Source: Cinclus cinclus
Taxonomy: Eukaryota > Chordata > Aves > Passeriformes > Cinclidae
Direction of reading: 5' to 3'
NCBI RefSeq assembly: GCF_963662255.1
Contig: NW_026912178.1
Span: forward strand, 1,612,001-1,676,000
DNA length: 64,000 bases
Made by a program: the position numbers and the translations under genes. This document shows, one piece after another, positions 1-64,000 of the stretch. The notes under the pieces are model-generated. The model made no database searches. It had not been told where the DNA came from and worked only from the letters and a program-made list of their open reading frames with translations. The stretch's first letter is position 1. Every line of letters starts with the position of its first letter.

Positions 1-74
1 ACACCACAGGGGTTAAGAGAAGCAAGGAACCATTGTGACCCAATGTAGGCTAACAATCTAAGAATCCCTTTTGA

Positions 75-87
75 CACCAGGGGGCTC
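75..87 (+). promoter_or_regulatory. CTCF-like core, CTC variant (CpG lost)
   Basis: The core reads CACCAGGGGGCTC; the G of the CpG is replaced by T while the GGC triplet is kept. By hand tally 22 B units have it, starting at -5, 1314, 7029, 10106, 12525, 13844, 19339, 21976, 22856, 24174, 24614, 29671, 31869, 37584, 40223, 42421, 43740, 46818, 47917, 49016, 54731 and 62203. Almost all are inherited with their block position. Such sites could still bind weakly and would be insensitive to methylation. Confidence 0.6.
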
Positions 88-214
88 AAAAGGACCACGG
101 ATGAACTGTGACAGCATGAGGACCTATAGAAGCAAGGATCTATTATGACACCATGAAGGCCAAGAATCAAATGATTCATTGTGACATCAAGTGGCCTAAA
201 AGGGCTTGGAATGC

Positions 215-434
215 ATTGTGACACCACAGAGGTTAAGAGAAGCAAGGAACCATTGTGACCCAAGGGAGGCTAACAATCTAATGATCCATTGTGACACCAG
301 GGGTTGTAATAGGGCCAGGGATGAATTGTGAAAGCATGGGGACCAAGAAAAACATGGAAACATTATGACACCATAGAGGCCAAGACTCAAATGATTCATT
401 GTAACACCAAGTGGACTAAAAGGGCATGGGACGC
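215..434 (+). repeat. Representative class A monomer (220 bp) with six subrepeats
   Basis: Six subrepeats start at 215, 252, 288, 325, 362 and 398, giving lengths of 37, 36, 37, 37, 36 and 37 bp. Five begin ATTGTGA or ATTATGA and the sixth ATTGTAAC; most continue with a CACCA-like core followed by a purine-rich stretch. Subrepeat 3 carries CACCAGGGGTTGT at 295-307, the degenerate counterpart of the CTCF-like core found in class B. Subrepeat 4 reads through ACCAAGAAAAACATGG, diagnostic of A. This copy has one CpG, in GGGACGC near 432; most A copies read GGGATGC there and have none. Confidence 0.95.
295..307 (+). other. Degenerate counterpart of the CTCF-like core in class A
   Basis: The homologous position in A units reads CACCAGGGGTTGT, sharing the first nine bases of the B core but lacking GGCGC. 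This is the same subrepeat (number 3) of the monomer. A units are therefore expected not to bind CTCF and would act as spacers between B sites. Confidence 0.7.
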
Positions 435-514
435 ATTGTGACACCACAGAGGTTAAGAGAAGCAAGGAACCATTGTGACCCAATGCAGGCTAACTATCTA
501 AGATTCCCTTTTGA

Positions 515-527
515 CACCAGGGGACGC
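515..527 (+). promoter_or_regulatory. CTCF-like core, GAC variant (probably weakened)
   Basis: The core reads CACCAGGGGACGC, changing the otherwise conserved GGC triplet of the motif to GAC, which is expected to weaken binding. By hand tally 17 B units have it, starting at 435, 4831, 7469, 10546, 12965, 17361, 19779, 25054, 30111, 35387, 40663, 47258, 52533, 55171, 56929, 59566 and 62643. Nearly all also read GGACAACAGATG instead of GGACCACGGATG, so the second CpG is lost too. Confidence 0.55.
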
Positions 528-654
528 AAAAGGACAACAGATGAACTGTGACAGCATGGGGACCTATAGAAGCAAGGATCTATTATGACACCATGAAGGC
601 CAAGAATCAAATGATTCATTGTGACATCAAGTGGCCTAAAAGGGCATGGGTTGC

Positions 655-874
655 ATTGTGACACCACAGAGGTTAAGAGAAGCAAGGAACCATTGTGACC
701 CCATGCAGGCTAACTATCCAAGATTCCCTTTTGACACCAGGGGGCGCAAAAGGACCACGGATGAACTGTGACAGCATGGGGACCTATAGAAGCAAGGATC
801 TATTATGACACCATGAAGGCCAAGAATCAAATGATTCATTGTGACATCAAGTGGCCTAAAAGGGCTTGGAATGC
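655..874 (+). repeat. Representative class B monomer (220 bp) carrying the CTCF-like core
   Basis: It has the same six-subrepeat layout as class A. Diagnostic B features are CATGCAGGC in subrepeat 2, CCCTTTTGACACCAGGGGGC in subrepeat 3, ACCTATAGAAGCAAGG in subrepeat 4, CCATGAAGGCCAAGAATC in subrepeat 5 and TGACATCAAGTGG in subrepeat 6. Only two CpGs are present: one inside the CTCF-like core at 735-747, and one in CCACGG about 10 bp downstream. B units outnumber A units because BB doublets recur at fixed places in the longer blocks. Confidence 0.95.
735..747 (+). promoter_or_regulatory. Intact CTCF-like core motif (first of about 114)
   Basis: The sequence CACCAGGGGGCGC lies 80 bp after the monomer start. 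The widely used vertebrate CTCF consensus, as I recall it, is TGGCCACCAGGGGGCGCTA; the 19-base window here agrees at 16 positions and across the entire 13-base core. The orientation is that of the consensus as written. CTCF is the zinc-finger insulator and loop-anchor protein. Binding is not demonstrated, only motif identity. Other intact copies in the first block start at 1614, 2054, 2274, 2714, 3153, 3812, 4032, 4471, 5350, 5570, 6010, 6450, 6670 and 7988. Confidence 0.72.
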
Positions 875-1093
875 ATTGTGACACCACAGAGGTTAAGAGA
901 AGCAGGGAACCATTGTGACCCAAGGGAGGCTAACAATCTAATGATCCCCTGTGACACCAGGGGTTGTTATAGGGCCAGGGATGAATTGTGAAAGCATGGG
1001 GCACAATAAATCATCCAAATATTATGACACCATAGAGGCCAAGACTCAAATGATTCATTGTTACACCAAGTGGCCTAAAAGGGCATGGGATGC
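875..1093 (+). repeat. Representative A2 monomer (219 bp subtype of A)
   Basis: A2 differs from A by CCCCTGTGAC (or CCCCAGTGAC) at the subrepeat 2/3 junction, usually GTTGTTATAGGG in subrepeat 3, and GCACAATAAATCAT in a 36 bp subrepeat 4, which makes the unit 219 bp. By hand tally 36 copies occur, starting at 875, 3293, 4172, 6810, 8128, 9007, 11426, 13405, 15823, 16702, 19120, 20438, 21317, 23076, 23955, 27693, 28572, 31430, 33849, 34728, 36706, 37365, 38684, 41982, 43521, 44840, 45719, 48577, 50995, 51874, 54512, 55830, 58028, 58907, 60885 and 61984. Four of these (8128, 27693, 38684, 44840) read CACAATTAATC instead. The copy at 875 and its equivalents at 11426, 13405, 31430, 41982 and 48577 read ATCATCCAAAT. 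Confidence 0.9.
1005..1010 (+). promoter_or_regulatory. AATAAA hexamer in A2 monomer
   Basis: GCACAATAAATC supplies a canonical polyadenylation hexamer on the plus strand in 32 of the 36 A2 units and in the five hybrids, by hand tally. I see no clear GU-rich downstream element, so use as a polyA signal is speculative. It is recorded because it is restricted to one monomer subtype. Confidence 0.35.
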
Positions 1094-2853
1094 ATTGTGA
1101 CACCACAGAGGTTAAGAGAAGCAAGCAACAATTGTGACCCAAGGGAGGCTAACAATCTAATGATCCATTGTGACACCAGGGGTTGTAATAGGGCCAGGGA
1201 TGAATTGTGAAAGCATGGAGCCCAAGAAAAACATGGAAACATTATGACACCATAGAGGCCAAGACTCAAATGATTCATTGTAACACCAAGTGGCCTAAAA
1301 GGTCATGGGACGCATTGTGACACCACAGGGGTTAAGAGAAGCAACGAACCATTGTGACCCAATGCAGGCTAACAATCTAAGAATCCCTTTTGACACCAGG
1401 GGGCTCAAAAGGACCACGGATGAACTGTGACAGCATGGGGACCTATAGAAGCAAGGATCTATTATGACACCATGAAGGCCAAGAATCAAATGATTCATTG
1501 TGACATCAAGTGGCCTAAAAGGGCTTGGAATGCATTGTGACACCACAGAGGTTAAGAGAAGCAAGGAACCATTGTGACCCAATGCAGGCTAACAATCTAA
1601 GAATCCCTTTTGACACCAGGGGGCGCAAAAGGACCACGGATGAACTGTGACAGCATGATGACCTATAGAAGCAAGGATCTATTATGACACCATGAAGGCC
1701 AAGAATCAAATGATTCATTGTGACATCAAGTGGCCTAAAAGGGCTTGGAATGCATTGTGACACCACAGAGGTTAAGAGAAGCAAGGAACCATTGTGACCC
1801 AAGGGAGGCTAACAATCTAATGATCCATTGTGACACCAGGGGTTGTAATAGGGCCAGGGATGAATTGTGAAAGCATGGAGCCCAAGAAAAACATGGAAAC
1901 ATTATGACACAATAGAGGCCAAGACTCAAATGATTCATTGTAACACCAAGTGGCCTTAAAGGGCATGGGATGCATTGTGACACCACAGAGGTTAAGAGAA
2001 GCAGGGAACCATTGTGACCCAATGCAGGCTAACAATCTAAGAATCCCTTTTGACACCAGGGGGCGCAAAAGGACCACGGATGAACTGTGACAGCATGGGG
2101 ACCTATAGAAGCAAGGATCTATTATGACACCATGAAGGCCAAGAATCAAATGATTCATTGTGACATCAAGTGGCCTAAAAGGGCATGGGTTGCATTGTGA
2201 CACCACAGAGGTTAAGAGAAGCAAGGAACCATTGTGACCCAATGGAGGCTAACAATCTAAGAATCCCTTTTGACACCAGGGGGCGCAAAAGGACTACCGA
2301 TGAACTGTGACAGCATGGGGACCTTTAGAAGCAAGGATTTATTATGACACCATGAAGGAAAAGAATCAAATGATTCATTGTGACATCAAGTGGCCTAAAA
2401 GGGCTTGGAATGCATTGTGACACCACAGAGGTTAAGAGAAGCAGGGAACCATTGTGACCCAAGGGAGGCTAACAATCTAATGATCCATTGTGACACCAGG
2501 GTTTGTAATAGGGCCAGGGATGAATTGTGAAAGCATGGGGCCCAAGAAAAACATGGAAACATTATGACACCATAGAGGCCACGACTCAAATGATTCATTG
2601 TAACACCAAGTGGCCTAAAAGGGCATGGGATGCATTGTGACACCACAGAGGTTAAGAGAAGCAAGGAACCATTGTGACCCCATGCAGGCTAACTATCCAA
2701 GATTCCCTTTTGACACCAGGGGGCGCAAAAGGACCACGGATGAACTGTGACAGCATGGGGACCTATAGAAGCAAGGATTTATTATGACACCATGAAGGCC
2801 AAGAATCAAATGATTCATTGTGACATCAAGTGGCCTAAAAGGGCATGGGATGC

Positions 2854-3072
2854 ATTGTGACACCACAGAGGTTAAGAGAAGCAGGGAACCATTGTGACCC
2901 AAGGGAGGCTAACAATCCAAAGATCCATTGTGACAGCAGGGGTTGTAATAGGGCCAGGGATGAATTGTGAAAGCATGGGGCACAATAAATCATGGAAATA
3001 TTATGACACCATGAAGGCCAAGAATCAAATGATTCATTGTGACATCAAGTGGCCTAAAAGGGCATGGGATGC
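2854..3072 (+). repeat. A2/B hybrid monomer (copy 1 of 5)
   Basis: The front part is A-like (CAAGGGAGGC, GGGGTTGTAATAGGG, then the A2 hallmark CACAATAAATCATGG). The rear switches to B in subrepeats 5-6 (CCATGAAGGCCAAGAATC and TGACATCAAG) and ends A-like (GGGCATGGGATGC). A private change, TGACAGCAGGGG, alters the CACCA core. The best explanation is an unequal exchange inside a monomer that was then fixed and copied with the block. A 61-codon plus-strand frame at 2894-3079 exists only because of this mixture; I do not regard it as a gene. Confidence 0.85.
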
Positions 3073-5050
3073 ATTGTGACACCACAGAGGTTAAGAGAAG
3101 CAAGGAACCATTGTGACCCAACGCAGGCTAACTATCCAAGATTCCCTTTTGACACCAGGGGGCGCAAAAGGACCACGGATGAACTGTGACAGCATGGGGA
3201 CCTATAGAAGCAAGGATTTATTATGACACCATGAAGGCCAAGAATCAAATGATTCATTGTGACATCAAGTGGCCTAAAAGGGCTTGGAATGCATTGTGAC
3301 ACCACAGAGGTTAAGAGAAGCAGGGAACCATTGTGACCCAAGGGAGGCTAACAATCTAATGATCCCCTGTGACACCAGGGGTTGTTATAGGGCCAGGGAT
3401 GAATTGTGAAAGCATGGGGCACAATAAATCATGGAAATATTATGACACCATAGAGGCCAAGACTCAAACGATTCATTGTGACATCAAGTGGCCTAAAAGG
3501 GCATGGGATGCATTGTGACACCACAGAGGTTAAGAGAAGCAAGGAACCATTGTGACCCAAGGGAGGCTAACAATCTAATGATCCATTGTGACACCAGGGG
3601 TTGTAATAGGGCCAGGGATGAATTGTGAAAGCATGGAGCCCAAGAAAAACATGGAAACATTATGACACCATAGAGGCCAAGACTCAAATGATTCATTGTA
3701 ACACCAAGTGGCCTTAAAGGGCATGGGATGCATTGTGACACCACAGAGGTTAAGAGAAGCAGGGAACCATTGTGACCCAATGCAGGCTAACAATCTAAGA
3801 ATCCCTTTTGACACCAGGGGGCGCAAAAGGACCACGGATGAACTGTGACAGCATGGGGACCTATAGAAGCAAGGATCTATTATGACACCATGAAGGCCAA
3901 GAATCAAATGATTCATTGTGACATCAAGTGGCCTAAAAGGGCTTGGAATGCATTGTGACACCACAGAGGTTAAGACAAGCAAGGAACCATTGTGACCCAA
4001 TGGAGGCTAACAATCTAAGAATCCCTTTTGACACCAGGGGGCGCAAAAGGACTACCGATGAACTGTGACAGCATGGGGACCTATAGAAGCAAGGATTTAT
4101 TATGACACCATGAAGGAAAAGAATCAAATGATTCATTGTGACATCAAGTGGCCTAAAAGGGCTTGGAATGCATTGTGACACCACAGAGGTTAAGAGAAGC
4201 AAGGAACCATTGTGACCCAAGGGAGGCTAACAATCTAATGATCCCCTGTGACACCAGGGGTTGTTATAGGGCCAGGGATGAATTGTGAAAGCATGGGGCA
4301 CAATAAATCATGGAAATATTATGACACCATAGAGGCCAAGATTCAAATGATTCATTGTAACACCAAGTGGCCTAAAAGGGCATGGGATGCATTGTGACAC
4401 CACAGAGGTTAAGAGAAGCAGGGAACCATTGTGACGCAATGCAGGCTAACAATCTAAGAATCCCTTTTGACACCAGGGGGCGCAAAAGGACCACGGATGA
4501 ACTGTGACAGCATGGGGACCTATAGAAGCAAGGATCTATTATGACACCATGAAGGCCAAGAATCAAACGATTCATTGTGACATCAAGTGGCCTAAAAGGG
4601 CATGGGATGCATTGTGACACCACAGAGGTTAAGAGAAGCAAGGAACCATTGTGACCCAAGGGAGGCTAACAATCTAATGATCCATTGTGACACCAGGGGT
4701 TGTAATAGGGCCAGGGATGAATTGTGAAAGCATGGGGACCAAGAAAAACATGGAAACATTATGACACCATAGAGGCCAAGACTCAAATGATTCATTGTAA
4801 CACCAAGTGGACTAAAAGGGCATGGGATGCATTGTGACACCACAGAGGTTAAGAGAAGCAAGGAACCATTGTGACCCAATGCAGGCTAACTATCTAAGAT
4901 TCCCTTTTGACACCAGGGGACGCAAAAGGACAACAGATGAACTGTGACAGCATGGGGACCTATAGAAGCAAGGATCTATTATGACACCATGAAGGCCAAG
5001 AATCAAATGATTCATTGTGACATCAAGTGGCCTAAAAGGGCTTGGAATGC

Positions 5051-5269
5051 ATTGTGACACCACAGAGGTTAAGACAAGCAAGGAACCATTGTGACCCAAG
5101 GGAGGCTTACAATCTAATGATCCATTGTGACACCAGGGGTTGTAATAGGGCCAGGGAAGAATTGTGAAAGCATGGAGACCAAAAAAACATGGAAACATTA
5201 TGACACCATAGAGGCCAAGACTCAAATGATTCATTGTAACACCAAGTGGCCTTAAAGGGCATGGGATGC
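5051..5269 (+). repeat. Representative 219 bp class A variant with A-run (CAAAAAAACATGG)
   Basis: This A unit has lost one base in subrepeat 4, where AAGAAAAACATGG has become AAAAAAACATGG, and it carries GGCTTACAATC in subrepeat 2. The same variant recurs at 7689, 17581, 19999, 25274, 30331, 35607, 40883, 47478, 52753, 55391, 59786 and 62863, each preceded by the B subtype whose CTCF-like core reads GGGGACGC. The pair therefore travels as a linked dimer and is a useful marker of block identity. Confidence 0.88.
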
Positions 5270-8259
5270 ATTGTGACACCACAGAGGTTAAGAGAAGCAG
5301 GGAACCATTGTGACCCAATGCAGGCTAACAATCTAAGAATCCCTTTTGACACCAGGGGGCGCAAAAGGACCACGGATGAACTGTGACAGCATGGGGACCT
5401 ATAGAAGCAAGGATCTATTATGACACCATGAAGGCCAAGAATCAAATGATTCATTGTGACATCAAGTGGCCTAAAAGGGCATGGGTTGCATTGTGACACC
5501 ACAGAGGTTAAGAGAAGCAAGGAACCATTGTGACCCAATGGAGGCTAACAATCTAAGAATCCCTTTTGACACCAGGGGGCGCAAAAGGACTACCGATGAA
5601 CTGTGACAGCATGGGGACCTATAGAAGCAAGGATTTATTATGACACCATGAAGGAAAAGAATCAAATGATTCATTGTGACATCAAGTGGCCTAAAAGGGC
5701 TTGGAATGCATTGTGACACCACAGAGGTTAAGAGAAGCAAGGAACCATTGTGACCCAAGGGAGGCTAACAATCTAATGATCCCCAGTGACACCAGGGTTT
5801 GTAATAGGGCCAGGGATGAATTGTGAAAGCATGGGGCCCAAGAAAAACATGGAAACATTATGACACCATAGAGGCCAAGACTCAAATGATTCATTGTAAC
5901 ACCAAGTGGCCTAAAAGGGCATGGGATGCATTGTGACACCACAGAGGTTAAGAGAAGCAAGGAACCATTGTGACCCCATGCAGGCTAACTATCCAAGATT
6001 CCCTTTTGACACCAGGGGGCGCAAAAGGACCACGGATGAACTGTGACAGCATGGGGACCTATAGAAGCAAGGATCTATTATGACACCATGAAGGCCAAGA
6101 ATCAAATGATTCATTGTGACATCAAGTGGCCTAAAAGGGCTTGGAATGCATTGTGACACCACAGAGGTTAAGAGAAGCAAGGAACCATTGTGACCCAAGG
6201 GAGGCTAACAATCTAATGATCCATTGTGACACCAGGGGTTGTAATAGGGCCAGGGATGAATTGTGAAAGCATGGAGCCCAAGAAAAACATGGAAACATTA
6301 TGACACCATAGAGGCCAAGACTCAAATGATTCATTGTAACACCAAGTGGCCTTAAAGGGCATGGGATGCATTGTGACACCACAGAGGTTAAGAGAAGCAG
6401 GGAACCATTGTGACCCAATGCAGGCTAACAATCTAAGAATCCCTTTTGACACCAGGGGGCGCAAAAGGACCACGGATGAACTGTGACAGCATGGGGACCT
6501 ATAGAAGCAAGGATCTATTATGACACCATGAAGGCCAAGAATCAAATGATTCATTGTGACATCAAGTGGCCTAAAAGGGCTTGGAATGCATTGTGACACC
6601 ACAGAGGTTAAGAGAAGCAAGGAAGCATTGTGACCCAATGGAGGCTAACAATCTAAGAATCCCTTTTGACACCAGGGGGCGCAAAAGGACTACCGATGAA
6701 CTGTGACAGCATGGGGACCTATAGAAGCAAGGATTTATTATGACACCATGAAGGAAAAGAATCAAATGATTCATTGTGACATCAAGTGGCCTAAAAGGGC
6801 TTGGAATGCATTGTGACACCACAGAGGTTAAGAGAAGCAAGGAACCATTGTGACCCAAGGGAGGCTAACAATCTAATGATCCCCTGTGACACCAGGGGTT
6901 GTTATAGGGCCAGGGATGAATTGTGAAAGCATGGGGCACAATAAATCATGGAAATATTATGACACCATAGAGGCCAAGACTCAAATGATTCATTGTTACA
7001 CCAAGTGGCCTAAAAGGGCATGGGATGCATTGTGACACCACAGAGGTTAAGAGAAGCAGGGAACCATTGTGACCCAATGCAGGGTAACAATCTAAGAATC
7101 CCTTTTGACACCAGGGGGCTCAAAAGGACCACGGATGAACTGTGACAGCATGAGGACCTATAGAAGCAAGGGTCTATTATGACACCATGAAGGCCAAGAA
7201 TCAAATGATTCATTGTGACATCAAGTGGCCTAAAAGGGCTTGGAATGCATTGTGACACCACAGAGGTTAAGAGAAGCAAGGAACCATTGTGACCCAAGGG
7301 AGGCTAACAATCTAATGATCCATTGTGACACCAGGGGTTGTAATAGGGCCAGGGATGAATTGTGAAATCATGGGGACCAAGAAAAACATGGAAACATTAT
7401 GACACCATAGAGGCCAAGACTCAAATGATTCATTGTAACACCAAGTGGCCTAAAAGGGCATGGGATGCATTGTGACACCACAGAGGTTAAGAGAAGCAAG
7501 GAACCATTGTGACCCAATGCAGGCTAACTATCTAAGATTCCCTTTTGACACCAGGGGACGCAAAAGGACAACAGATGAACTGTGACAGCATGGGGACCTA
7601 TAGAAGCAAGGATCTATTATGACACCATGAAGGCCAAGAATCAAATGATTCATTGTGACATCAAGTGGCCTAAAAGGGCTTGGAATGCATTGTGACACCA
7701 CAGAGGTTAAGACAAGCAAGGAACCATTGTGACCCAAGGGAGGCTTACAATCTAATGATCCATTGTGACACCAGGGGTTGTAATAGGGCCAGGGATGAAT
7801 TGTGAAAGCATGGAGCCCAAAAAAACATGGAAACATTTTGACACCATAGAGGCCAAGACTCAAATGATTCATTGTAACACCAAGTGGCCTAAAAGGGCAT
7901 GGGATGCATTGTGACACCACAGGGGTTAAGAGAAGCAAGGAACCATTGTGACCCAATGCAGGCCAACAATCTAAGAATCCCTTTTGACACCAGGGGGCGC
8001 AAAGGGACCACGGATGAACTGTGACGGCATGGGGACCTATAGAAGCAAGGATCTATTACGACACCATGAAGGCCAAGAATCAAATGATTCATTGAGACAT
8101 CAAGTGGCCTAAAAGGGCTTGGAATGCATTGTGACACCACAGAGGTTAAGAGAAGCCGAGAACCATTGTGGCCCAAGGGAGGCTAACAATCTAATGATCC
8201 CCAGTGACACCAGGGGTTGTAATAGGGCCAGGGATGAATTGTGAAAGCATGGGGCACAA

Positions 8260-10790
8260 TTAATCATGGAAATATTATGACAACATAGAGGCCAAGACTC
8301 AAATGATTCATTGTAACACCAAGTGGCCTTAAAGGGCATGGGATGCATTGTGACACCACAGAGGTTAAGAGAAGCAGGGAACCATTGTGACCCAATGCAG
8401 GCTAACAATCTAAGAGTCCCTTTTGACACCAGGGGGCGCAAAAGGACCACGGATGAACTGTGACAGCATGGGGACCTATAGAAGCAAGGATCTATTATGA
8501 TACCATGAAGGCCAAGAATCAAATGATTCATTGGGACATCAAGTGGCCTAAAAGGGCTTGGAATGCATTGTGACACCACAGAGGTTAAGAGAAGCAAGGA
8601 ACCATTGTGACCCAATGCAGGCTAACAATCTAATGATCCATTGTGACACCAGGGGTTGTAATAGGGCCAGGGATGAATTGTGAAAGCATGGGGCCCAAGA
8701 AAAACATGGAAACATTATGACACCATAGAGGCCAAGACTCAAATGATTCATTGTAACACCAAGTGGCCTAAAAGGGCATGGGATGCATTGTGACACCACA
8801 GAGGTTAAGAGAAGCAAGGAACCATTGTGACCCAATGCAGGCTAACTATCCAAGATTCCCTTTTGACACCAGGGGGCGCAAAAGGACCACGGATGAACTG
8901 TGACAGCATGGGGACCTATAGAAGCAAGGATTTATTATGACACCATGAAGGCCAAGAATCAAATGATTCATTGTGACATCAAGTGGCCTAAAAGGGCTTG
9001 GAATGCATTGTGACACCACAGAGGTTAAGAGAAGCAGGGAACCATTGTGACCCAAGGGAGGCTAACAATCTAATGATCCCCTGTGACACCAGGGGTTGTT
9101 ATAGGGCCAGGGATGAATTGTGAAAGCATGGGGCACAATAAATCATGGAAATATTATGACACCATAGAGGCCAAGACTCAAATGATTCATTGTTACACCA
9201 AGTGGCCTAAAAGGGCATGGGATGCATTGTGACACCACAGAGGTTAAGAGAAGCAGGGAACCATTGTGACCCAATGCAGGCTAACAATCTAAGAATCCCT
9301 TTTGACACCAGGGGGCGCAAAAGGACCACGGATGAACTGTGACAGCATGGGGACCTATAGAAGCAAGGATCTATTATGACACCATGAAGGCCAAGAATCA
9401 AATGATTCATTGGGACATCAAGTGGCCTAAAAGGGCTTGGAATGCATTGTGACACCACAGAGGTTAAGAGAAGCAAGCAACCATTGTGACCCAAGGGAGG
9501 CTAACAATCTAATGATCCATTGTGACACCAGGGGTTGTAATAGGGCCAGGGATGAATTGTGAAAGCATGGAGCCCAAGAAAAACATGGAAACATTATGAC
9601 ACCATAGAGGCCAAGACTCAAATGATTCATTGTAACACCAAGTGGCCTAAAAGGTCATGGGACGCATTGTGACACCACAGAGGTTAAGAGAAGCAGGGAA
9701 CCATTGTGACCCAATGCAGGCTAACAATCTAAGAGTCCCTTTTGACACCAGGGGGCGCAAAAGGACCACGGATGAACTGTGACAGCATGGGGACCTATAG
9801 AAGCAAGGATCTATTATGACACCATGAAGGCCAAGAATCAAATGATTCATTGTGACATCAAGTGGCCTAAAAGGGCTTGGAATGCATTGTGACACCTCAG
9901 AGGTTAAGAGAAGCAGGGAACCATTGTGACTCAAGGGAGGCTAACAATCTAACGATCCCCTGTGACACCAGGGGTTGTAATAGGGCCAGGGATGAATTGT
10001 GAAAGCATGGAGCCCAAGAAAAACATGGAAACATTATGACACCATAGAGGCCAAGACTCAAATGATTCATTGTAACACCAAGTGGCCTAAAAGGGCATGG
10101 GACGCATTGTGACACCACAGGGGTTAAGAGAAGCAAGGAACCATTGTGACCCAATGTAGGCTAACAATCTAAGAATCCCTTTTGACACCAGGGGGCTCAA
10201 AAGGACCACGGATGAACTGTGACAGCATGAGGACCTATAGAAGCAAGGATCTATTATGACACCATGAAGGCCAAGAATCAAATGATTCATTGTGACATCA
10301 AGTGGCCTAAAAGGGCTTGGAATGCATTGTGACACCACAGAGGTTAAGAGAAGCAAGGAACCATTGTGACCCAAGGGAGGCTAACAATCTAATGATCCAT
10401 TGTGACACCAGGGGTTGTAATAGGGCCAGGGATGAATTGTGAAAGCATGGGGACCAAGAAAAACATGGAAACATTATGACACCATAGAGGCCAAGACTCA
10501 AATGATTCATTGTAACACCAAGTGGACTAAAAGGGCATGGGACGCATTGTGACACCACAGAGGTTAAGAGAAGCAAGGAACCATTGTGACCCAATGCAGG
10601 CTAACTATCTAAGATTCCCTTTTGACACCAGGGGACGCAAAAGGACAACAGATGAACTGTGACAGCATGGGGACCTATAGAAGCAAGGATCTATTATGAC
10701 ACCATGAAGGCCAAGAATCAAATGATTCATTGTGACATCAAGTGGCCTAAAAGGGCATGGGTTGCATTGTGACACCACAGAGGTTAAGAG
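8260..10790. repeat. Higher-order block beta, copy 1
   Basis: The block starts within the A2 unit at 8,128, where CACAATTAATC replaces the alpha sequence. B units start at 8347, 8787, 9226, 9666, 10106 and 10546, mostly alternating with A. Markers are TGATACCATGAAGG and ATTGGGACATC in the first B unit, AAAAGGTCATGGGACGC near 9,652, TCTAAGAGTCCC near 9,728 and the CGATCCCCTG variant near 9,952. The same order recurs at offsets 19,565 and 36,712, and in shortened form near 39 kb. Confidence 0.85.
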
Positions 10791-36600: not shown

Positions 36601-36739
36601 GACAGCATGGGGACCTATAGAAGCAAGGATCTATTATGACACCATGAAGGCCAAGAATCAAATGATTCATTGTGACATCAAGTGGCCTAAAAGGGCTTGG
36701 AATGCATTGTGACACCACAGAGGTTAAGAGAAGCAGGGA

Positions 36740-49300: not shown

Positions 49301-49900
49301 AAGAATCCCTTTTGACACCAGGGGGCGCAAAAGGACCACGGATGAACTGTGACAGCATGATGACCTATAGAAGCAAGGATCTATTATGACACCATGAAGG
49401 CCAAGAATCAAATGATTCATTGTGACATCAAGTGGCCTAAAAGGGCTTGGAATGCATTGTGACACCACAGAGGTTAAGAGAAGCAAGGAACCATTGTGAC
49501 CCAAGGGAGGCTAACAATCTAATGATCCATTGTGACACCAGGGGTTGTAATAGGGCCAGGGATGAATTGTGAAAGCATGGAGCCCAAGAAAAACATGGAA
49601 ACATTATGACACAATAGAGGCCAAGACTCAAATGATTCATTGTAACACCAAGTGGCCTTAAAGGGCATGGGATGCATTGTGACACCACAGAGGTTAAGAG
49701 AAGCAGGGAACCATTGTGACCCAATGCAGGCTAACAATCTAAGAATCCCTTTTGACACCAGGGGGCGCAAAAGGACCACGGATGAACTGTGACAGCATGG
49801 GGACCTATAGAAGCAAGGATCTATTATGACACCATGAAGGCCAAGAATCAAATGATTCATTGTGACATCAAGTGGCCTAAAAGGGCATGGGTTGCATTGT
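43300..49900. repeat. ~6.6 kb (30-monomer) higher-order unit, tandem copy 2
   Basis: B starts are 43301, 43740, 44180, 44620, 45059, 45499, 45938, 46378, 46818, 47258, 47697, 47917, 48357, 49016, 49236, 49676 and 49896. It contains the full beta copy at 44,973-47,478 (offset 36,712 from 8,261) and then enters alpha copy 4. Agreement with the preceding unit ends at about 49,900, where this copy keeps GGGCATGGGTTGC followed by ACCTTTAGAAGC. Confidence 0.82.
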
Positions 49901-52900: not shown

Positions 52901-55900
52901 TATGACACCATAGAGGCCAAGACTCAAATGATTCATTGTAACACCAAGTGGCCTTAAAGGGCATGGGATGCATTGTGACACCACAGAGGTTAAGAGAAGC
53001 AGGGAACCATTGTGACCCAATGCAGGCTAACAATCTAAGAATCCCTTTTGACACCAGGGGGCGCAAAAGGACCACGGATGAACTGTGACAGCATGGGGAC
53101 CTATAGAAGCAAGGATCTATTATGACACCATGAAGGCCAAGAATCAAATGATTCATTGTGACATCAAGTGGCCTAAAAGGGCATGGGTTGCATTGTGACA
53201 CCACAGAGGTTAAGAGAAGCAAGGAACCATTGTGACCCAATGGAGGCTAACAATCTAAGAATCCCTTTTGACACCAGGGGGCGCAAAAGGACTACCGATG
53301 AACTGTGACAGCATGGGGACCTATAGAAGCAAGGATTTATTATGACACCATGAAGGAAAAGAATCAAATGATTCATTGTGACATCAAGTGGCCTAAAAGG
53401 GCTTGGAATGCATTGTGACACCACAGAGGTTAAGAGAAGCAAGGAACCATTGTGACCCAAGGGAGGCTAACAATCTAATGATCCCCAGTGACACCAGGGT
53501 TTGTAATAGGGCCAGGGATGAATTGTGAAAGCATGGGGCCCAAGAAAAACATGGAAACATTATGACACCATAGAGGCCAAGACTCAAATGATTCATTGTA
53601 ACACCAAGTGGCCTAAAAGGGCATGGGATGCATTGTGACACCACAGAGGTTAAGAGAAGCAAGGAACCATTGTGACCCCATGCAGGCTAACTATCCAAGA
53701 TTCCCTTTTGACACCAGGGGGCGCAAAAGGACCACGGATGAACTGTGACAGCATGGGGACCTATAGAAGCAAGGATCTATTATGACACCATGAAGGCCAA
53801 GAATCAAATGATTCATTGTGACATCAAGTGGCCTAAAAGGGCTTGGAATGCATTGTGACACCACAGAGGTTAAGAGAAGCAAGGAACCATTGTGACCCAA
53901 GGGAGGCTAACAATCTAATGATCCATTGTGACACCAGGGGTTGTAATAGGGCCAGGGATGAATTGTGAAAGCATGGAGCCCAAGAAAAACATGGAAACAT
54001 TATGACACCATAGAGGCCAAGACTCAAATGATTCATTGTAACACCAAGTGGCCTTAAAGGGCATGGGATGCATTGTGACACCACAGAGGTTAAGAGAAGC
54101 AGGGAACCATTGTGACCCAATGCAGGCTAACAATCTAAGAATCCCTTTTGACACCAGGGGGCGCAAAAGGACCACGGATGAACTGTGACAGCATGGGGAC
54201 CTATAGAAGCAAGGATCTATTATGACACCATGAAGGCCAAGAATCAAATGATTCATTGTGACATCAAGTGGCCTAAAAGGGCTTGGAATGCATTGTGACA
54301 CCACAGAGGTTAAGAGAAGCAAGGAAGCATTGTGACCCAATGGAGGCTAACAATCTAAGAATCCCTTTTGACACCAGGGGGCGCAAAAGGACTACCGATG
54401 AACTGTGACAGCATGGGGACCTATAGAAGCAAGGATTTATTATGACACCATGAAGGAAAAGAATCAAATGATTCATTGTGACATCAAGTGGCCTAAAAGG
54501 GCTTGGAATGCATTGTGACACCACAGAGGTTAAGAGAAGCAAGGAACCATTGTGACCCAAGGGAGGCTAACAATCTAATGATCCCCTGTGACACCAGGGG
54601 TTGTTATAGGGCCAGGGATGAATTGTGAAAGCATGGGGCACAATAAATCATGGAAATATTATGACACCATAGAGGCCAAGACTCAAATGATTCATTGTTA
54701 CACCAAGTGGCCTAAAAGGGCATGGGATGCATTGTGACACCACAGAGGTTAAGAGAAGCAGGGAACCATTGTGACCCAATGCAGGGTAACAATCTAAGAA
54801 TCCCTTTTGACACCAGGGGGCTCAAAAGGACCACGGATGAACTGTGACAGCATGAGGACCTATAGAAGCAAGGGTCTATTATGACACCATGAAGGCCAAG
54901 AATCAAATGATTCATTGTGACATCAAGTGGCCTAAAAGGGCTTGGAATGCATTGTGACACCACAGAGGTTAAGAGAAGCAAGGAACCATTGTGACCCAAG
55001 GGAGGCTAACAATCTAATGATCCATTGTGACACCAGGGGTTGTAATAGGGCCAGGGATGAATTGTGAAATCATGGGGACCAAGAAAAACATGGAAACATT
55101 ATGACACCATAGAGGCCAAGACTCAAATGATTCATTGTAACACCAAGTGGCCTAAAAGGGCATGGGATGCATTGTGACACCACAGAGGTTAAGAGAAGCA
55201 AGGAACCATTGTGACCCAATGCAGGCTAACTATCTAAGATTCCCTTTTGACACCAGGGGACGCAAAAGGACAACAGATGAACTGTGACAGCATGGGGACC
55301 TATAGAAGCAAGGATCTATTATGACACCATGAAGGCCAAGAATCAAATGATTCATTGTGACATCAAGTGGCCTAAAAGGGCTTGGAATGCATTGTGACAC
55401 CACAGAGGTTAAGACAAGCAAGGAACCATTGTGACCCAAGGGAGGCTTACAATCTAATGATCCATTGTGACACCAGGGGTTGTAATAGGGCCAGGGATGA
55501 ATTGTGAAAGCATGGAGCCCAAAAAAACATGGAAACATTTTGACACCATAGAGGCCAAGACTCAAATGATTCATTGTAACACCAAGTGGCCTAAAAGGGC
55601 ATGGGATGCATTGTGACACCACAGGGGTTAAGAGAAGCAAGGAACCATTGTGACCCAATGCAGGCCAACAATCTAAGAATCCCTTTTGACACCAGGGGGC
55701 GCAAAGGGACCACGGATGAACTGTGACGGCATGGGGACCTATAGAAGCAAGGATCTATTACGACACCATGAAGGCCAAGAATCAAATGATTCATTGAGAC
55801 ATCAAGTGGCCTAAAAGGGCTTGGAATGCATTGTGACACCACAGAGGTTAAGAGAAGCCGAGAACCATTGTGGCCCAAGGGAGGCTAACAATCTAATGAT

Positions 55901-55962
55901 CCCCAGTGACACCAGGGGTTGTAATAGGGCCAGGGATGAATTGTGAAAGCATGGGGCACAAT
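48357..55962. repeat. Higher-order block alpha, copy 4 (full length)
   Basis: It matches 655-8,260 at a constant offset of 47,702 bp over 7.6 kb with no net insertion or deletion. B starts are 48357, 49016, 49236, 49676, 49896, 50336, 50775, 51434, 51654, 52093, 52533, 52972, 53192, 53632, 54072, 54292, 54731, 55171 and 55610. Small differences exist; for example, CACGGTTGAACTG near 51,537 replaces CACGGATGAACTG, and AAGGAAGCATTG near 51,686 replaces AAGGAACCATTG. Confidence 0.9.
50556..50774 (+). repeat. A2/B hybrid monomer (copy 4 of 5)
   Basis: Same hybrid structure at offset 47,702 from the first copy, within the block that matches 655-8,260. Confidence 0.85.
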
Positions 55963-56048
55963 AAATCATGGAAATATTATGACACCATAGAGGCCAAGAT
56001 TCAAATGATTCATTGTAACACCAAGTGGCCTAAAAGGGCATGGGATGC

Positions 56049-59000
56049 ATTGTGACACCACAGAGGTTAAGAGAAGCAGGGAACCATTGTGACCCAATGC
56101 AGGCTAACAATCTAAGAATCCCTTTTGACACCAGGGGGCGCAAAAGGACCACGGATGAACTGTGACAGCATGGGGACCTATAGAAGCAAGGATCTATTAT
56201 GACACCATGAAGGCCAAGAATCAAACGATTCATTGTGACATCAAGTGGCCTAAAAGGGCATGGGATGCATTGTGACACCACAGAGGTTAAGAGAAGCAAG
56301 GAACCATTGTGACGCAATGCAGGCTAACAATCTAAGAATCCCTTTTGACACCAGGGGGCGCAAAAGGACCACGGATGAACTGTGACAGCATGATGACCTA
56401 TAGAAGCAAGGATCTATTATGACACCATGAAGGCCAAGAATCAAATGATTCATTGTGACATCAAGTGGCCTAAAAGGGCTTGGAATGCATTGTGACACCA
56501 CAGAGTTTAAGAGAAGCAAGGAACCATTGTGACCCAAGGGAGGATAACAATCTAATGATCCATTGTGACACCAGGGGTTGTAATAGGGCCAGGGATGAAT
56601 TGTGAAAGCATGGAGCCCAAGAAAAACATGGAAACATTATGACACAATAGAGGCCAAGACTCAAATGATTCATTGTAACACCAAGTGGCCTTAAAGGGCA
56701 TGGGATGCATTGTGACACCACAGAGGTTAAGAGAAGCAGGGAACCATTGTGACCCAATGCAGGCTAACAATCTAAGAATCCCTTTTGACACCAGGGAGCG
56801 CAAAAGGACCACGGATGAACTGTGACAGCATGGGGACCTATAGAAGCAAGGATCTATTATGACACCATGAAGGCCAAGAATCAAATGATTCATTGTGACA
56901 TCAAGTGGCCTAAAAGGCCATGGGTTGCATTGTGACACCACAGAGGTTAAGAGAAGCAAGGAACCATTGTGACCCAATGGAGGCTAACAATCTAAGAATC
57001 CCTTTTGACACCAGGGGACGCAAAAGGACTACCGATGAACTGTGACAGAATGGGGACCTTTAGAAGCAAGGATTTATTATGACACCATGACGGAAAAGAA
57101 TCAAATGATTCATTGTGACATCAAGTGGCCTAAAAGGACTTGGAATGCATTGTGACACCACAGAGGTTAAGAGAAGCAGGGAACCATTGTGACCCAAGGG
57201 AGGCTAACAATCTAATGATCCATTGTGACACCAGGGTTTGTAATAGGGCCAGGGATGAATTGTGAAAGCATGGGGCCCAAGAAAAACATGGAAACATTAT
57301 GACACCATAGAGGCCATGACTCAAATGATTCATTGTAACACCAAGTGGCCTAAAAGGGCATGGGATGCATTGTGACACCACAGAGGTTAAGAGAAGCAAG
57401 GAACCATTGTGACCCCATGCAGGCTAACTATCCAAGATTCCCTTTTGACACCAGGGGGCGCAAAAGGACCACGGATGAACTGTGACAGCATGGGGACCTA
57501 TAGAAGCAAGGATTTATTATGACACCATGAAGGCCAAGAATCAAATGATTCATTGTGACATCAAGTGGCCTAAAAGGGCTTGGAATGCATTGTGACACCA
57601 CAGAGGTTAAGAGAAGCAGGGAACCATTGTGACCCAAGGGAGGCTAACAATCCAAAGATCCATTGTGACAGCAGGGGTTGTAATAGGGCCAGGGATGAAT
57701 TGTGAAAGCATGGGGCACAATAAATCATGGAAATATTATGACACCATGAAGGCCAAGAATCAAATGATTCATTGTGACATCAAGTGGCCTAAAAGGGCAT
57801 GGGATGCATTGTGACACCACAGAGGTTAAGAGAAGCAAGGAACCATTGTGACCCAACGCAGGCTAACTATCCAAGATTCCCTTTTGACACCAGGGGGCGC
57901 AAAAGGACCACGGATGAACTGTGACAGCATGGGGACCTATAGAAGCAAGGATTTATTATGACACCATGAAGGCCAAGAATCAAATGATTCATTGTGACAT
58001 CAAGTGGCCTAAAAGGGCTTGGAATGCATTGTGACACCACAGAGGTTAAGAGAAGCAGGGAACCATTGTGACCCAAGGGAGGCTAACAATCTAATGATCC
58101 CCTGTGACACCAGGGGTTGTTATAGGGCCAGGGATGAATTGTGAAAGCATGGGGCACAATAAATCATGGAAATATTATGACACCATAGAGGCCAAGACTC
58201 AAACGATTCATTGTGACATCAAGTGGCCTAAAAGGGCATGGGATGCATTGTGACACCACAGAGGTTAAGAGAAGCAAGGAACCATTGTGACCCAAGGGAG
58301 GCTAACAATCTAATGATCCATTGTGACACCAGGGGTTGTAATAGGGCCAGGGATGAATTGTGAAAGCATGGAGCCCAAGAAAAACATGGAAACATTATGA
58401 CACCATAGAGGCCAAGACTCAAATGATTCATTGTAACACCAAGTGGCCTTAAAGGGCATGGGATGCATTGTGACACCACAGAGGTTAAGAGAAGCAGGGA
58501 ACCATTGTGACCCAATGCAGGCTAACAATCTAAGAATCCCTTTTGACACCAGGGGGCGCAAAAGGACCACGGTTGAACTGTGACAGCATGGGGACCTATA
58601 GAAGCAAGGATCTATTATGACACCATGAAGGCCAAGAATCAAATGATTCATTGTGACATCAAGTGGCCTAAAAGGGCTTGGAATGCATTGTGACACCACA
58701 GAGGTTAAGAGAAGCAAGGAAGCATTGTGACCCAATGGAGGCTAACAATCTAAGAATCCCTTTTGACACCAGGGGGCGCAAAAGGACTACCGATGAACTG
58801 TGACAGCATGGGGACCTATAGAAGCAAGGATTTATTATGACACCATGAAGGAAAAGAATCAAATGATTCATTGTGACATCAAGTGGCCTAAAAGGGCTTG
58901 GAATGCATTGTGACACCACAGAGGTTAAGAGAAGCAAGGAACCATTGTGACCCAAGGGAGGCTAACAATCTAATGATCCCCTGTGACACCAGGGGTTGTT

Positions 59001-62000
59001 ATAGGGCCAGGGATGAATTGTGAAAGCATGGGGCACAATAAATCATGGAAATATTATGACACCATAGAGGCCAAGATTCAAATGATTCATTGTAACACCA
59101 AGTGGCCTAAAAGGGCATGGGATGCATTGTGACACCACAGAGGTTAAGAGAAGCAGGGAACCATTGTGACGCAATGCAGGCTAACAATCTAAGAATCCCT
59201 TTTGACACCAGGGGGCGCAAAAGGACCACGGATGAACTGTGACAGCATGGGGACCTATAGAAGCAAGGATCTATTATGACACCATGAAGGCCAAGAATCA
59301 AACGATTCATTGTGACATCAAGTGGCCTAAAAGGGCATGGGATGCATTGTGACACCACAGAGGTTAAGAGAAGCAAGGAACCATTGTGACCCAAGGGAGG
59401 CTAACAATCTAATGATCCATTGTGACACCAGGGGTTGTAATAGGGCCAGGGATGAATTGTGAAAGCATGGGGACCAAGAAAAACATGGAAACATTATGAC
59501 ACCATAGAGGCCAAGACTCAAATGATTCATTGTAACACCAAGTGGACTAAAAGGGCATGGGATGCATTGTGACACCACAGAGGTTAAGAGAAGCAAGGAA
59601 CCATTGTGACCCAATGCAGGCTAACTATCTAAGATTCCCTTTTGACACCAGGGGACGCAAAAGGACAACAGATGAACTGTGACAGCATGGGGACCTATAG
59701 AAGCAAGGATCTATTATGACACCATGAAGGCCAAGAATCAAATGATTCATTGTGACATCAAGTGGCCTAAAAGGGCTTGGAATGCATTGTGACACCACAG
59801 AGGTTAAGACAAGCAAGGAACCATTGTGACCCAAGGGAGGCTTACAATCTAATGATTCATTGTGACACCAGGGGTTGTAATAGGGCCAGGGAAGAATTGT
59901 GAAAGCATGGAGCCCAAAAAAACATGGAAACATTTTGACACCATAGAGGCCAAGACTCAAATGATTCATTGTAACACCAAGTGGCCTTAAAGGGCATGGG
60001 ATGCATTGTGACACCACAGAGGTTAAGAGAAGCAGGGAACCATTGTGACCCAATGCAGGCTAACAATCTAAGAATCCCTTTTGACACCAGGGGGCGCAAA
60101 AGGACCACGGATGAACTGTGACAGCATGGGGACCTATAGAAGCAAGGATCTATTATGACACCATGAAGGCCAAGAATCAAATGATTCATTGTGACATCAA
60201 GTGGCCTAAAAGGGCATGGGTTGCATTGTGACACCACAGAGGTTAAGAGAAGCAAGGAACCATTGTGACCCAATGGAGGCTAACAATCTAAGAATCCCTT
60301 TTGACACCAGGGGGCGCAAAAGGACTACCGATGAACTGTGACAGCATGGGGACCTATAGAAGCAAGGATTTATTATGACACCATGAACGAAAAGAATCAA
60401 ATGATTCATTGTGACATCAAGTGGCCTAAAAGGGCTTGGAATGCATTGTGACACCACAGAGGTTAAGAGAAGCAAGGAACCATTGTGACCCAAGGGAGGC
60501 TAACAATCTAATGATCCCCAGTGACACCAGGGTTTGTAATAGGGCCAGGGATGAATTGTGAAAGCATGGGGCCCAAGAAAAACATGGAAACATTATGACA
60601 CCATAGAGGCCAAGACTCAAATGATTCATTGTAACACCAAGTGGCCTAAAAGGGCATGGGATGCATTGTGACACCACAGAGGTTAAGAGAAGCAAGGAAC
60701 CATTGTGACCCCATGCAGGCTAACTATCCAAGATTCCCTTTTGACACCAGGGGGCGCAAAAGGACCACGGATGAACTGTGACAGCATGGGGACCTATAGA
60801 AGCAAGGATCTATTATGACACCATGAAGGCCAAGAATCAAATGATTCATTGTGACATCAAGTGGCCTAAAAGGGCTTGGAATGCATTGTGACACCACAGA
60901 GGTTAAGAGAAGCAGGGAACCATTGTGACCCAAGGGAGGCTAACAATCTAATGATCCCCTGTGACACCAGGGGTTGTTATAGGGCCAGGGATGAATTGTG
61001 AAAGCATGGGGCACAATAAATCATGGAAATATTATGACACCATAGAGGCCAAGACTCAAACGATTCATTGTGACATCAAGTGGCCTAAAAGGGCATGGGA
61101 CGCATTGTGACACCACAGAGGTTAAGAGAAGCAAGGAACCATTGTGACCCAATGCAGGCTAACAATCTAAGAATCCCTTTTGACACCAGGGGGCGCAAAA
61201 GGACCACGGATGAACTGTGACAGCATGATGACCTATAGAAGCAAGGATCTATTATGACACCATGAAGGCCAAGAATCAAATGATTCATTGTGACATCAAG
61301 TGGCCTAAAAGGGCTTGGAATGCATTGTGACACCACAGAGGTTAAGAGAAGCAAGGAACCATTGTGACCCAAGGGAGGCTAACAATCTAATGATCCATTG
61401 TGACACCAGGGGTTGTAATAGGGCCAGGGATGAATTGTGAAAGCATGGAGCCCAAGAAAAACATGGAAACATTATGACACCATAGAGGCCAAGACTCAAA
61501 TGATTCATTGTAACACCAAGTGGCCTTAAAGGGCATGGGATGCATTGTGACACCACAGAGGTTAAGAGAAGCAGGGAACCATTGTGACCCAATGCAGGCT
61601 AACAATCTAAGAATCCCTTTTGACACCAGGGGGCGCAAAAGGACCACGGATGAACTGTGACAGCATGGGGACCTATAGAAGCAAGGATCTATTATGACAC
61701 CATGAAGGCCAAGAATCAAATGATTCATTGTGACATCAAGTGGCCTAAAAGGGCTTGGAATGCATTGTGACACCACAGAGGTTAAGAGAAGCAAGGAAGC
61801 ATTGTGACCCAATGGAGGCTAACAATCTAAGAATCCCTTTTGACACCAGGGGGCGCAAAAGGACTACCGATGAACTGTGACAGCATGGGGACCTATAGAA
61901 GCAAGGATTTATTATGACACCATGAAGGAAAAGAATCAAATGATTCATTGTGACATCAAGTGGCCTAAAAGGGCTTGGAATGCATTGTGACACCACAGAG

Positions 62001-63360
62001 GTTAAGAGAAGCAAGGAACCATTGTGACCCAAGGGAGGCTAACAATCTAATGATCCCCTGTGACACCAGGGGTTGTTATAGGGCCAGGGATGAATTGTGA
62101 AAGCATGGGGCACAATAAATCTTGGAAATATTATGACACCATAGAGGCCAAGACTCAAATGATTCATTGTTACACCAAGTGGCCTAAAAGGGCATGGGAT
62201 GCATTGTGACACCACAGAGGTTAAGAGAAGCAGGGAACCATTGTGACCCAATGCAGGGTAACAATCTAAGAATCCCTTTTGACACCAGGGGGCTCAAAAG
62301 GACCACGGATGAACTGTGACAGCATGAGGACCTATAGAAGCAAGGGTCTATTATGACACCATGAAGGCCAAGAATCAAATGATTCATTGTGACATCAAGT
62401 GGCCTAAAAGGGCTTGGAATGCATTGTGACACCACAGAGGTTAAGAGAAGCAAGGAACCATTGTGACCCAAGGGAGGCTAACAATCTAATGATCCATTGT
62501 GACACCAGGGGTTGTAATAGGGCCAGGGATGAATTGTGAAATCATGGGGACCAAGAAAAACATGGAAACATTATGACACCATAGAGGCCAAGACTCAAAT
62601 GATTCATTGTTACACCAAGTGGCCTAAAAGGGCATGGGATGCATTGTGACACCACAGAGATTAAGAGAAGCAAGGAACCATTGTGACCCAATGCAGGCTA
62701 ACTATCTAAGATTCCCTTTTGACACCAGGGGACGCAAAAGGACAACAGATGAACTGTGACAGCATGGGGACCTATAGAAGCAAGGATCTATTATGACACC
62801 ATGAAGGCCAAGAATCAAATGATTCATTGTGACATCAAGTGGCCTAAAAGGGCTTGGAATGCATTGTGACACCACAGAGGTTAAGACAAGCAAGGAACCA
62901 TTGTGACCCAAGGGAGGCTTACAATCTAATGATCCATTGTGACACCAGGGGTTGTAATAGGGCCAGGGATGAATTGTGAAAGCATGGAGCCCAAAAAAAC
63001 ATGGAAACATTTTGACACCATAGAGGCCAAGACTCAAATGATTCATTGTAACACCAAGTGGCCTAAAAGGGCATGGGATGCATTGTGACACCACAGGGGT
63101 TAAGAGAAGCAAGGAACCATTGTGACCCAATGCAGGCCAACAATCTAAGAATCCCTTTTGACACCAGGGGGCGCAAAGGGACCACGGATGAACTGTGACG
63201 GCATGGGGACCTATAGAAGCAAGGATCTATTACGACACCATGAAGGCCAAGAATCAAATGATTCATTGAGACATCAAGTGGCCTAAAAGGGCTTGGAATG
63301 CATTGTGACACCACAGAGGTTAAGAGAAGCCGAGAACCATTGTGGCCCAAGGGAGGCTAA
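56049..63360. repeat. ~7.03 kb (32-monomer) higher-order unit following alpha copy 4
   Basis: It repeats 49,456 to about 55,950 at offset 7,033, changes to 7,472 after about 60,900 (one extra A2+B dimer at 60,885-61,323) and returns to 7,033 at about 63,500. B starts are 56049, 56269, 56709, 56929, 57369, 57808, 58467, 58687, 59126, 59566, 60005, 60225, 60665, 61104, 61544, 61764, 62203, 62643 and 63082. Private variants cluster at 56,5xx-57,4xx (GGATAACAATC, CAGGGAGCGC, GACAGAATGG, ATGACGGAAAAG), so this stretch is older or more exposed to mutation than its neighbours. Confidence 0.82.
57589..57807 (+). repeat. A2/B hybrid monomer (copy 5 of 5)
   Basis: Same hybrid structure, 7,033 bp downstream of copy 4. 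It marks the second of the two tandem 7 kb blocks at the right of the window. The preceding B monomer ends GGGCTTGGAATGC here, versus GGGCATGGGATGC before the other four hybrids. Confidence 0.85.
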
Positions 63361-63521
63361 CAATCTAATGATCCCTTTTGACACCAGGGGGCGCAAAAGG
63401 ACCACGGATGAACTGTGACAGCATGATGACCTATAGAAGCAAGGATCTATTATGACACCATGAAGGCCAAGAATCAAATGATTCATTGTGACATCAAGTG
63501 GCCTAAAAGGGCTTGGAATGC
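63302..63521 (+). repeat. A2-to-B switch monomer at the start of the last partial block
   Basis: The front (GCCGAGAACC, TGTGGCCCAAGGGAGGC, CTAATGATCC) is that of the A2 unit that follows block alpha elsewhere (8,128; 20,438; 55,830). It then switches at CCCTTTTGACACC to a full B unit with an intact CTCF-like core at 63,382-63,394. The CATGATGACC variant in the rear equals that of 56,269 and 1,534. The exchange point lies near 63,370. After it the array repeats 56,489 onward at offset 7,033. Confidence 0.85.
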
Positions 63522-64000
63522 ATTGTGACACCACAGAGGTTAAGAGAAGCAAGGAACCATTGTGACCCAAGGGAGGCTAACAATCTAATGATCCATTGTG
63601 ACACCAGGGGTTGTAATAGGGCCAGGGATGAATTGTGAAAGCATGGAGCCCAAGAAAAACATGGAAACATTATGACACAATAGAGGCCAAGACTCAAATG
63701 ATTCATTGTAACACCAAGTGGCCTTAAAGGGCATGGGATGCATTGTGACACCACAGAGGTTAAGAGAAGCAGGGAACCATTGTGACCCAATGCAGGCTAA
63801 CAATCTAAGAATCCCTTTTGACACCAGGGAGCGCAAAAGGACCACGGATGAACTGTGACAGCATGGGGACCTATAGAAGCAAGGATCTATTATGACACCA
63901 TGAAGGCCAAGAATCAAATGATTCATTGTGACATCAAGTGGCCTAAAAGGGCATGGGTTGCATTGTGACACCACAGAGGTTAAGAGAAGCAAGGAACCAT

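What the first reader, a model, noticed from the sequence alone, without database searches (positions are those of the whole stretch)
1..64000. Satellite array carrying about 114 same-orientation CTCF-consensus cores
Seen: class B monomers contain CACCAGGGGGCGC at a fixed position (start + 80 bp), always on the plus strand. My hand tally is about 114 intact among about 157 B units, roughly one per 560 bp. Known: CTCF binds this core, stops cohesin-driven loop extrusion in an orientation-dependent way, and the human DXZ4 macrosatellite uses arrayed CTCF sites on the inactive X. Inferred: this array could be a dense one-directional extrusion barrier, insulator or chromosome-scale boundary. The site density is far higher than in DXZ4, which has about one site cluster per 3 kb unit.
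Basis: partly seen in the sequence, partly recalled or inferred. Interest (0 to 1): 0.88.

Follow-up and report, generated by a model that had tools for sequence, protein, structure and literature searches.

The report
Bird satellite DNA carrying CTCF sites
Long repeated DNA at many chromosome ends of what is very probably a songbird carries tens of thousands of strong-looking, one-way binding sites for CTCF, a protein that helps fold chromosomes, but the sites show no sign of being protected by selection, so whether they do anything must be tested by experiment.

Summary
The window is one 220-bp satellite; CACCAGGGGGCGC occurs 114 times, all on +. Its 19-mer scores 19.4 bits on the CTCF matrix (recalled); 154 + sites and no - site reach 13 bits. 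The 1.17-Gb genome (songbird-like scaffold sizes, inferred) encodes CTCF zinc fingers, four pieces 95-98% identical to human, and holds 30,942 exact cores and 61,845 19-mers within one mismatch. Of 33 large scaffolds probed, 17 have the satellite at or near one end, in four cases opposite a telomere: it looks (peri)centromeric. In 16 of 17 the core reads outward from the arm. Against a selected function: in 539 B units, 114 of 220 windows are more conserved than the 19-mer and 157 more than the 13-mer, which has the most variant types of any 13-mer; a nearly coreless, more diverged block has the same polarity. Best reading: a centromeric subclass gained a bindable CTCF site and spread by ordinary amplification. 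Binding is likely; a selected barrier is unproven. New variant of CTCF-bearing tandem repeats.

The parts
1..64000 (+). Head-to-tail satellite, 220/219/221-bp units made of six ~36.7-bp sub-units; A and B classes; fills the whole window
   Evidence: TRF periods 37, 110, 220 over 1-64000; 291 unit starts, 290 spacings of 220, 219 or 221 bp; 155 B and 134 A of 289 complete units
661..880 (+). Example class B unit (core-bearing)
   Evidence: Core at 735-747 = unit positions 75-87; sequence read
735..747 (+). First of 114 exact CACCAGGGGGCGC cores
   Evidence: All 114 listed; 19-mer TTGACACCAGGGGGCGCAA = 19.37 bits
881..1099 (+). Example class A unit; the same place reads CACCAGGGGTTGT (the A consensus word scores 6.2 bits)
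   Evidence: Sequence; A consensus score
63382..63394 (+). Last of the 114 exact cores in the window

Best explanation
This is the (peri)centromeric satellite of many acrocentric chromosomes of a songbird. Its 220-bp unit is six diverged copies of a ~36.7-bp word containing TGACACCAnnGnGGC, already a partial CTCF core. In one subclass (B) a few substitutions turned the third word into a near-consensus CTCF site. B, often alternating with A, then spread by unequal exchange within arrays and exchange between chromosomes, to 30,942 exact cores (61,845 19-mers within one mismatch). Shown: motif, strand, copy number, position at scaffold ends, common polarity, host CTCF gene, lack of conservation of the core. 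Inferred: the organism; the centromere; that CTCF can bind many copies, since the score is high and the only CpG in the core is at core position 12, where methylation is tolerated. Bound copies would face one way, with the cohesin-blocking side away from the arm. That effect is a by-product: neither the motif nor its direction shows a mark of selection.
For: 19.4-bit sites on one strand. Host CTCF zinc fingers at C14:7,116,430-7,121,792, four listed pieces at 95-98% identity. 30,942 exact cores, 0 in the reversed control; 61,845 19-mers within 1 mismatch, control 0. Core not conserved in 539 B units: 114 of 220 windows are more conserved than the 19-mer, 157 more than the 13-mer; distinct variants per position 2.31 in the 13-mer against 1.30 outside the 19-mer; changes inside the 13-mer about as damaging as a neutral spectrum predicts (-5.18 against -4.89 bits, P 0.16). 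Nearly coreless, more diverged block of the same satellite at 2.0-2.37 Mb of the contig. A-class word at the same place scores 6.2 bits. Satellite at or near one end of 17 of 33 large scaffolds. Methylation tolerated at position 12: PMC6222495, passages.
Against: No binding data; the array may be closed heterochromatin and unbound. With tens of thousands of copies, selection on the sum would leave little trace on single copies. Common polarity in 16 of 17 scaffolds is more order than a passive model must give, although exchange between chromosomes predicts it. 16 of 33 scaffolds show no such satellite at the ends probed. The nearly coreless block still has 7 + and 2 - sites of 13 bits or more in 40 kb.
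Confidence: 0.6

Rival explanations
1. A selected one-way cohesin border. CTCF on the arrays stalls cohesin that travels from the centromere side toward the arm, holding cohesin in the pericentromere as convergent genes do in budding yeast.
For: The core reads outward from the arm in 16 of 17 scaffolds; on C10, the exception at its scaffold end, the cores listed at 35.59-35.65 Mb are on +. With the convergent rule (recalled, Rao 2014) the blocking face looks away from the arm. Yeast precedent: PMC8856730, passages.
Against: No conservation of the core; GGGGGCTC and GGGGACGC versions amplified; the nearly coreless block has the same polarity, so direction probably came before the site; scaffolds C1, C5 and C6, the three longest seen, show no array at either end.
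Confidence: 0.13
2. A CTCF sink or a driver. The array soaks up CTCF, or recruitment of CTCF and cohesin helps it spread or win in female meiosis.
For: The number of sites is of the order of a mouse ES cell's CTCF peaks (71,200), against 217,200 CTCF molecules per cell (PMC6579579, passages). Core-bearing B units are more uniform (2.2% from their consensus) than A units (3.8%) and A-type units of the nearly coreless block (6.8%), as after a recent spread.
Against: Low divergence follows any recent amplification; broken cores are amplified too; no test of drive or titration was possible.
Confidence: 0.12
3. A chance motif in closed chromatin: never bound, no consequence.
For: 2 of 30,000 shuffled monomers reach 19.3 bits, so among thousands of satellites some will; strong CpG depletion, observed/expected 0.11, suggests long methylation.
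Against: Site strength, a host CTCF gene and a CpG at the methylation-tolerant position make a complete lack of binding unlikely, at least in vitro.
Confidence: 0.15

Closest known systems
DXZ4 / Dxz4 macrosatellite (mammalian X)
   Same: Tandem array with a CTCF site in the repeat unit
   Different: 3.0-kb unit, X-linked; its CTCF sequence is the most conserved part across mammals (PMC3491370, passages). Here a 220-bp unit, many scaffolds, core not conserved within the array; sex linkage not tested
Avian (peri)centromeric satellites
   Same: Long head-to-tail arrays at non-telomeric ends of acrocentric scaffolds, monomer subclasses
   Different: No paper text held any of six monomer words (0 papers). 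No CTCF-bearing bird satellite appeared in the listings seen (25 of 117, 4 of 4, 1 of 1, 20 of 21 and 2 of 2 papers listed)
Budding-yeast pericentromere borders
   Same: A direction-dependent stop for cohesin around a centromere is the role that the border rival proposes
   Different: Yeast has no CTCF and uses convergent genes (PMC8856730, passages)

Membership tests
CTCF binding site | Match to the CTCF matrix well above background | tested here: met
   19.37 bits x114; 154 sites >=13 bits on +, 0 on -; matrix recalled
CTCF binding site | Genome encodes CTCF | tested here: met
CTCF binding site | Occupied by CTCF in cells | not testable with these tools
   No ChIP data
CTCF binding site | Motif conserved more than its surroundings (usual for selected sites; not required for binding) | tested here: not met
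   114 of 220 windows more conserved than the 19-mer, 157 than the 13-mer; most variant types of any 13-mer
DXZ4-type macrosatellite | CTCF site in the tandem unit | tested here: met
DXZ4-type macrosatellite | Kilobase unit at one X-linked locus | tested here: not met
   220-bp unit on 17 scaffolds; gene neighbours not examined
(Peri)centromeric satellite | Long head-to-tail arrays at the non-telomeric ends of many chromosomes | tested here: met
   17 of 33 scaffolds; telomere repeat at the other end on C19, C20, C22 and C26
(Peri)centromeric satellite | CENP-A chromatin or heterochromatin marks | not testable with these tools
   No chromatin data
Directional extrusion barrier | Hi-C boundary and cohesin accumulation | not testable with these tools
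   No Hi-C

The most novel reading that the evidence does not exclude
Songbird acrocentric chromosomes are capped by a satellite that works as a polar CTCF diode: up to some 60,000 sites, their cohesin-blocking face turned away from the arm, keep cohesin in the pericentromere and at the same time hold a large share of the cell's CTCF.
Probability: 0.12. Interest if true: 0.92.

Novelty: new variant of a known kind. Interest (0 to 1): 0.62.

Why it matters
If CTCF binds it, this is a natural array of one-way CTCF sites far denser than one per 3-kb DXZ4 unit, on many chromosomes at once and in a near-constant direction relative to the arm. It would be a ready test of loop-extrusion rules (what cohesin does in nearly 2 Mb of same-facing sites), of CTCF titration, and of whether architecture proteins take part in centromere evolution. 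If it is unbound, it shows how heterochromatin hides tens of thousands of near-consensus sites.

Tried and rejected
Viral contigs (one 30-base pattern, 0 matches) and plasmids (no match) as sources. Rfam: 0 families. Six monomer words in the paper library: 0 papers. In wheatear, nightingale and thrush repeat papers (passages only) I saw no 220-bp unit; the nightingale paper was not searched for unit length. That the core is protected by selection was tested and failed. The opposite idea, a mutation hot spot as a footprint of binding, is only weak: 17 private variants in the 13-mer, top of 220 windows, but P 0.027 by position and 0.038 by base; in class A the same positions are average (23 against a mean of 22.1). 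CpG decay as a methylation clock: only two CpGs in the B consensus, and their changes are dominated by amplified variants, so not informative. Never answered: the exact count of the 19-mer, a control 19-mer with one mismatch, a rare-variant map, and DM-domain genes to find the Z chromosome.

Counting notes: the B-unit tests used 18 of 22 satellite stretches; L011 and L027-L029 (the nearly coreless block) were left out. Probes of the C18, C24 and C33 starts read N. The ends of C34-C36 and all of C42 (at least 60.7 Mb) were not probed. C7 counts by its probes at 71.525-74.0 Mb; 74.3 Mb and its last 120 bases are other sequence. The lists show only the first 100 places, 12 of those 100 lie outside arrays (C1 four, C5 two, C6 two, C7 four), and the eight that I read hold no satellite.

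Full report
What is there. The window is one head-to-tail satellite from end to end (periods 37, 110 and 220 over 1-64000; about 45.5% GC and even). It has 291 unit starts 220, 219 or 221 bp apart, each unit six diverged copies of a ~36.7-bp word. Two classes, A and B, often alternate (155 B and 134 A of 289 complete units). B carries TTGACACCAGGGGGCGCAA at unit positions 71-89. The 13-mer core occurs 114 times, all on +.

Is it a good CTCF site? Shuffling the B monomer with dinucleotides kept gives 19.3 bits or more in 2 of 30,000 trials. The A-class word at the same place scores 6.2 and that of the nearly coreless block 1.7. The only CpG of the core lies at core position 12 (my numbering from the consensus), where methylation is tolerated; there is none at position 2, where methylation hinders binding (PMC6222495, passages). 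The array as a whole is CpG-poor, observed/expected 0.11.

Where it sits. The window is C187:1,612,001-1,676,000 of a 1.17-Gb assembly in 277 contigs. C187 is 2,575,000 bp. Twenty-three 10-kb samples were taken. The 21 up to 2.37 Mb are this satellite on +. The 17 samples up to 1.9 Mb hold 362 + and 3 - sites of 13 bits or more. The four samples at 2.0-2.37 Mb have no exact 13-mer core, but still 7 + and 2 - sites of 13 bits or more; their A-type units stand 6.8% from their consensus against 3.8% for A units elsewhere (the block may mix subclasses). The last two samples differ in composition (56% GC); one of them is a repeat of about 1,378 bp. Scaffold lengths (152, 118, 118, 74, 74, 63, 39, 31 Mb and on down) are those of a songbird; that identification is mine from memory, not from a tool.

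Chromosome ends. I probed 33 scaffolds larger than 3 Mb with short stretches. Seventeen have the satellite at or near one end: starts of C9, C12, C16, C23, C26, C28, C31, C32 and C36, all on -; ends of C13, C19, C20, C22, C25 and C30 and most of the last 3 Mb of C7, all on +; end of C10 on -. So in 16 of 17 the core reads from the arm outward (two-sided sign test 2.7e-4, which treats scaffolds as independent; exchange between chromosomes makes that doubtful). C10 is the exception at its end (probes at 38.0, 38.3, 38.5 Mb and the end on -), but its cores listed at 35.59-35.65 Mb are on +, so either the array changes direction or the scaffold is misjoined; what lies between was not probed. C19, C20 and C22 begin, and C26 ends, in telomere repeat at the other end from the satellite. 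Fourteen further probes inside the arrays agree in direction with the end probes in 14 of 14; 3 of these 14 hold a site of 15 bits or more (C10, C16, C28).

How many. Exact cores: 17,451 forward and 13,491 reverse, control 0. The 19-mer with up to one mismatch: 32,591 and 29,254, control 0. Only the first 100 places of each are listed, 12 of these lie outside arrays. For comparison a canonical CTCF pattern, CCASYAGRGGGCGCT, has 89 matches, control 0, of which 47 lie in another tandem repeat on C34 and 42 elsewhere. Mouse ES cells have about 71,200 CTCF peaks and 217,200 CTCF molecules (PMC6579579, passages). The genome has the CTCF gene: four zinc-finger pieces at 95-98% identity on C14, covering residues 1-55 and 137-302 of the 312-residue query; no piece for residues 56-136 and 303-312 was in the capped list.

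Is the site kept by selection? In 539 B units outside the nearly coreless block, 114 of 220 circular windows are more conserved than the 19-mer and 157 more than the 13-mer; 65.3% of units are exact over the 19-mer against 70.5% for the mean window, and 138 of 220 windows are more often exact. Distinct variants per position are 2.31 in the 13-mer and 1.30 outside the 19-mer, the highest of all 220 13-mers. Within the 13-mer the changes are about as damaging as a neutral spectrum predicts (-5.18 against -4.89 bits, P 0.16). Over the whole 19-mer they were more damaging than expected (-4.82 against -3.59), I think because they fall in its centre; in the window alone the difference is within chance (-4.03 against -3.59). 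Broken versions such as GGGGGCTC (75 of 539 have that T) and GGGGACGC (33 of 539 have that A) are amplified along with intact ones. A caution: with tens of thousands of copies, selection on single copies would be weak in any case.

How it most likely works. The sites are probably bindable, and where chromatin is open CTCF would bind many. By the convergent rule (recalled), cohesin is stopped when it comes from the 3' side of the core, here the side away from the arm. So the array would let extrusion in from the arm and stop extrusion toward the arm. Direction is most simply explained by tandem growth plus exchange between chromosome ends, which needs a common polarity (my reasoning); the nearly coreless block shares it, so direction probably preceded the site. 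I therefore hold the barrier to be a possible effect, not a shown function.

What is known. Tandem repeats with CTCF sites are known, DXZ4 first; there the CTCF sequence is what mammals keep (PMC3491370, passages). None of the listings I searched (titles and starts of abstracts, 25 of 117, 4, 1, 20 of 21 and 2 papers) describes a bird satellite with arrayed CTCF sites; most subscription papers are not in that library.

Noticed in passing
G000:C34:1,222,714-1,488,263: 47 matches of CCAGCAGRGGGCGCT, many 35 or 70 bp apart and on both strands: another minisatellite with canonical CTCF sites.
   Followed up: no
L031 (C187:2,565,001-2,575,000), L030 by composition; starts of C17 and C21; C215: Another satellite, about 1,378 bp, 56% GC and rich in CpG (567-587 per 10 kb), on the same contig as the 220-bp array. 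The period was measured in L031 only.
   Followed up: partly
32 contigs, e.g. C21:56,509, C27:20,194, C33:55,092, C230:93,730: A C2H2 zinc-finger open frame of 428-430 residues on 32 contigs in the capped list, several near contig ends: perhaps a recent subtelomeric expansion.
   Followed up: no
Ends of C23, C27, C28, C31, C32, C33; starts of C25, C30, C35: What looks by eye like one shared repeat (with TTCCATAAGGACGAGG), a candidate subtelomeric repeat; in 6 of these 9 the 220-bp satellite was seen at the other end.
   Followed up: no
Unit positions 179-197 of many monomers, minus strand: A weak 10.8-bit CTCF-like match facing the other way, also in the consensus of the nearly coreless block.
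   Followed up: partly
L011 and the consensus of the nearly coreless block, unit positions about 80-95: At the place of the core the older monomers read GGGGTATAAAAAGGG, a TATA-box-like word.
   Followed up: no
C187 and other contigs: Several unplaced contigs have lengths in whole thousands (2,575,000; 444,000; 975,000), as if cut at Hi-C bin borders; inference.
   Followed up: no
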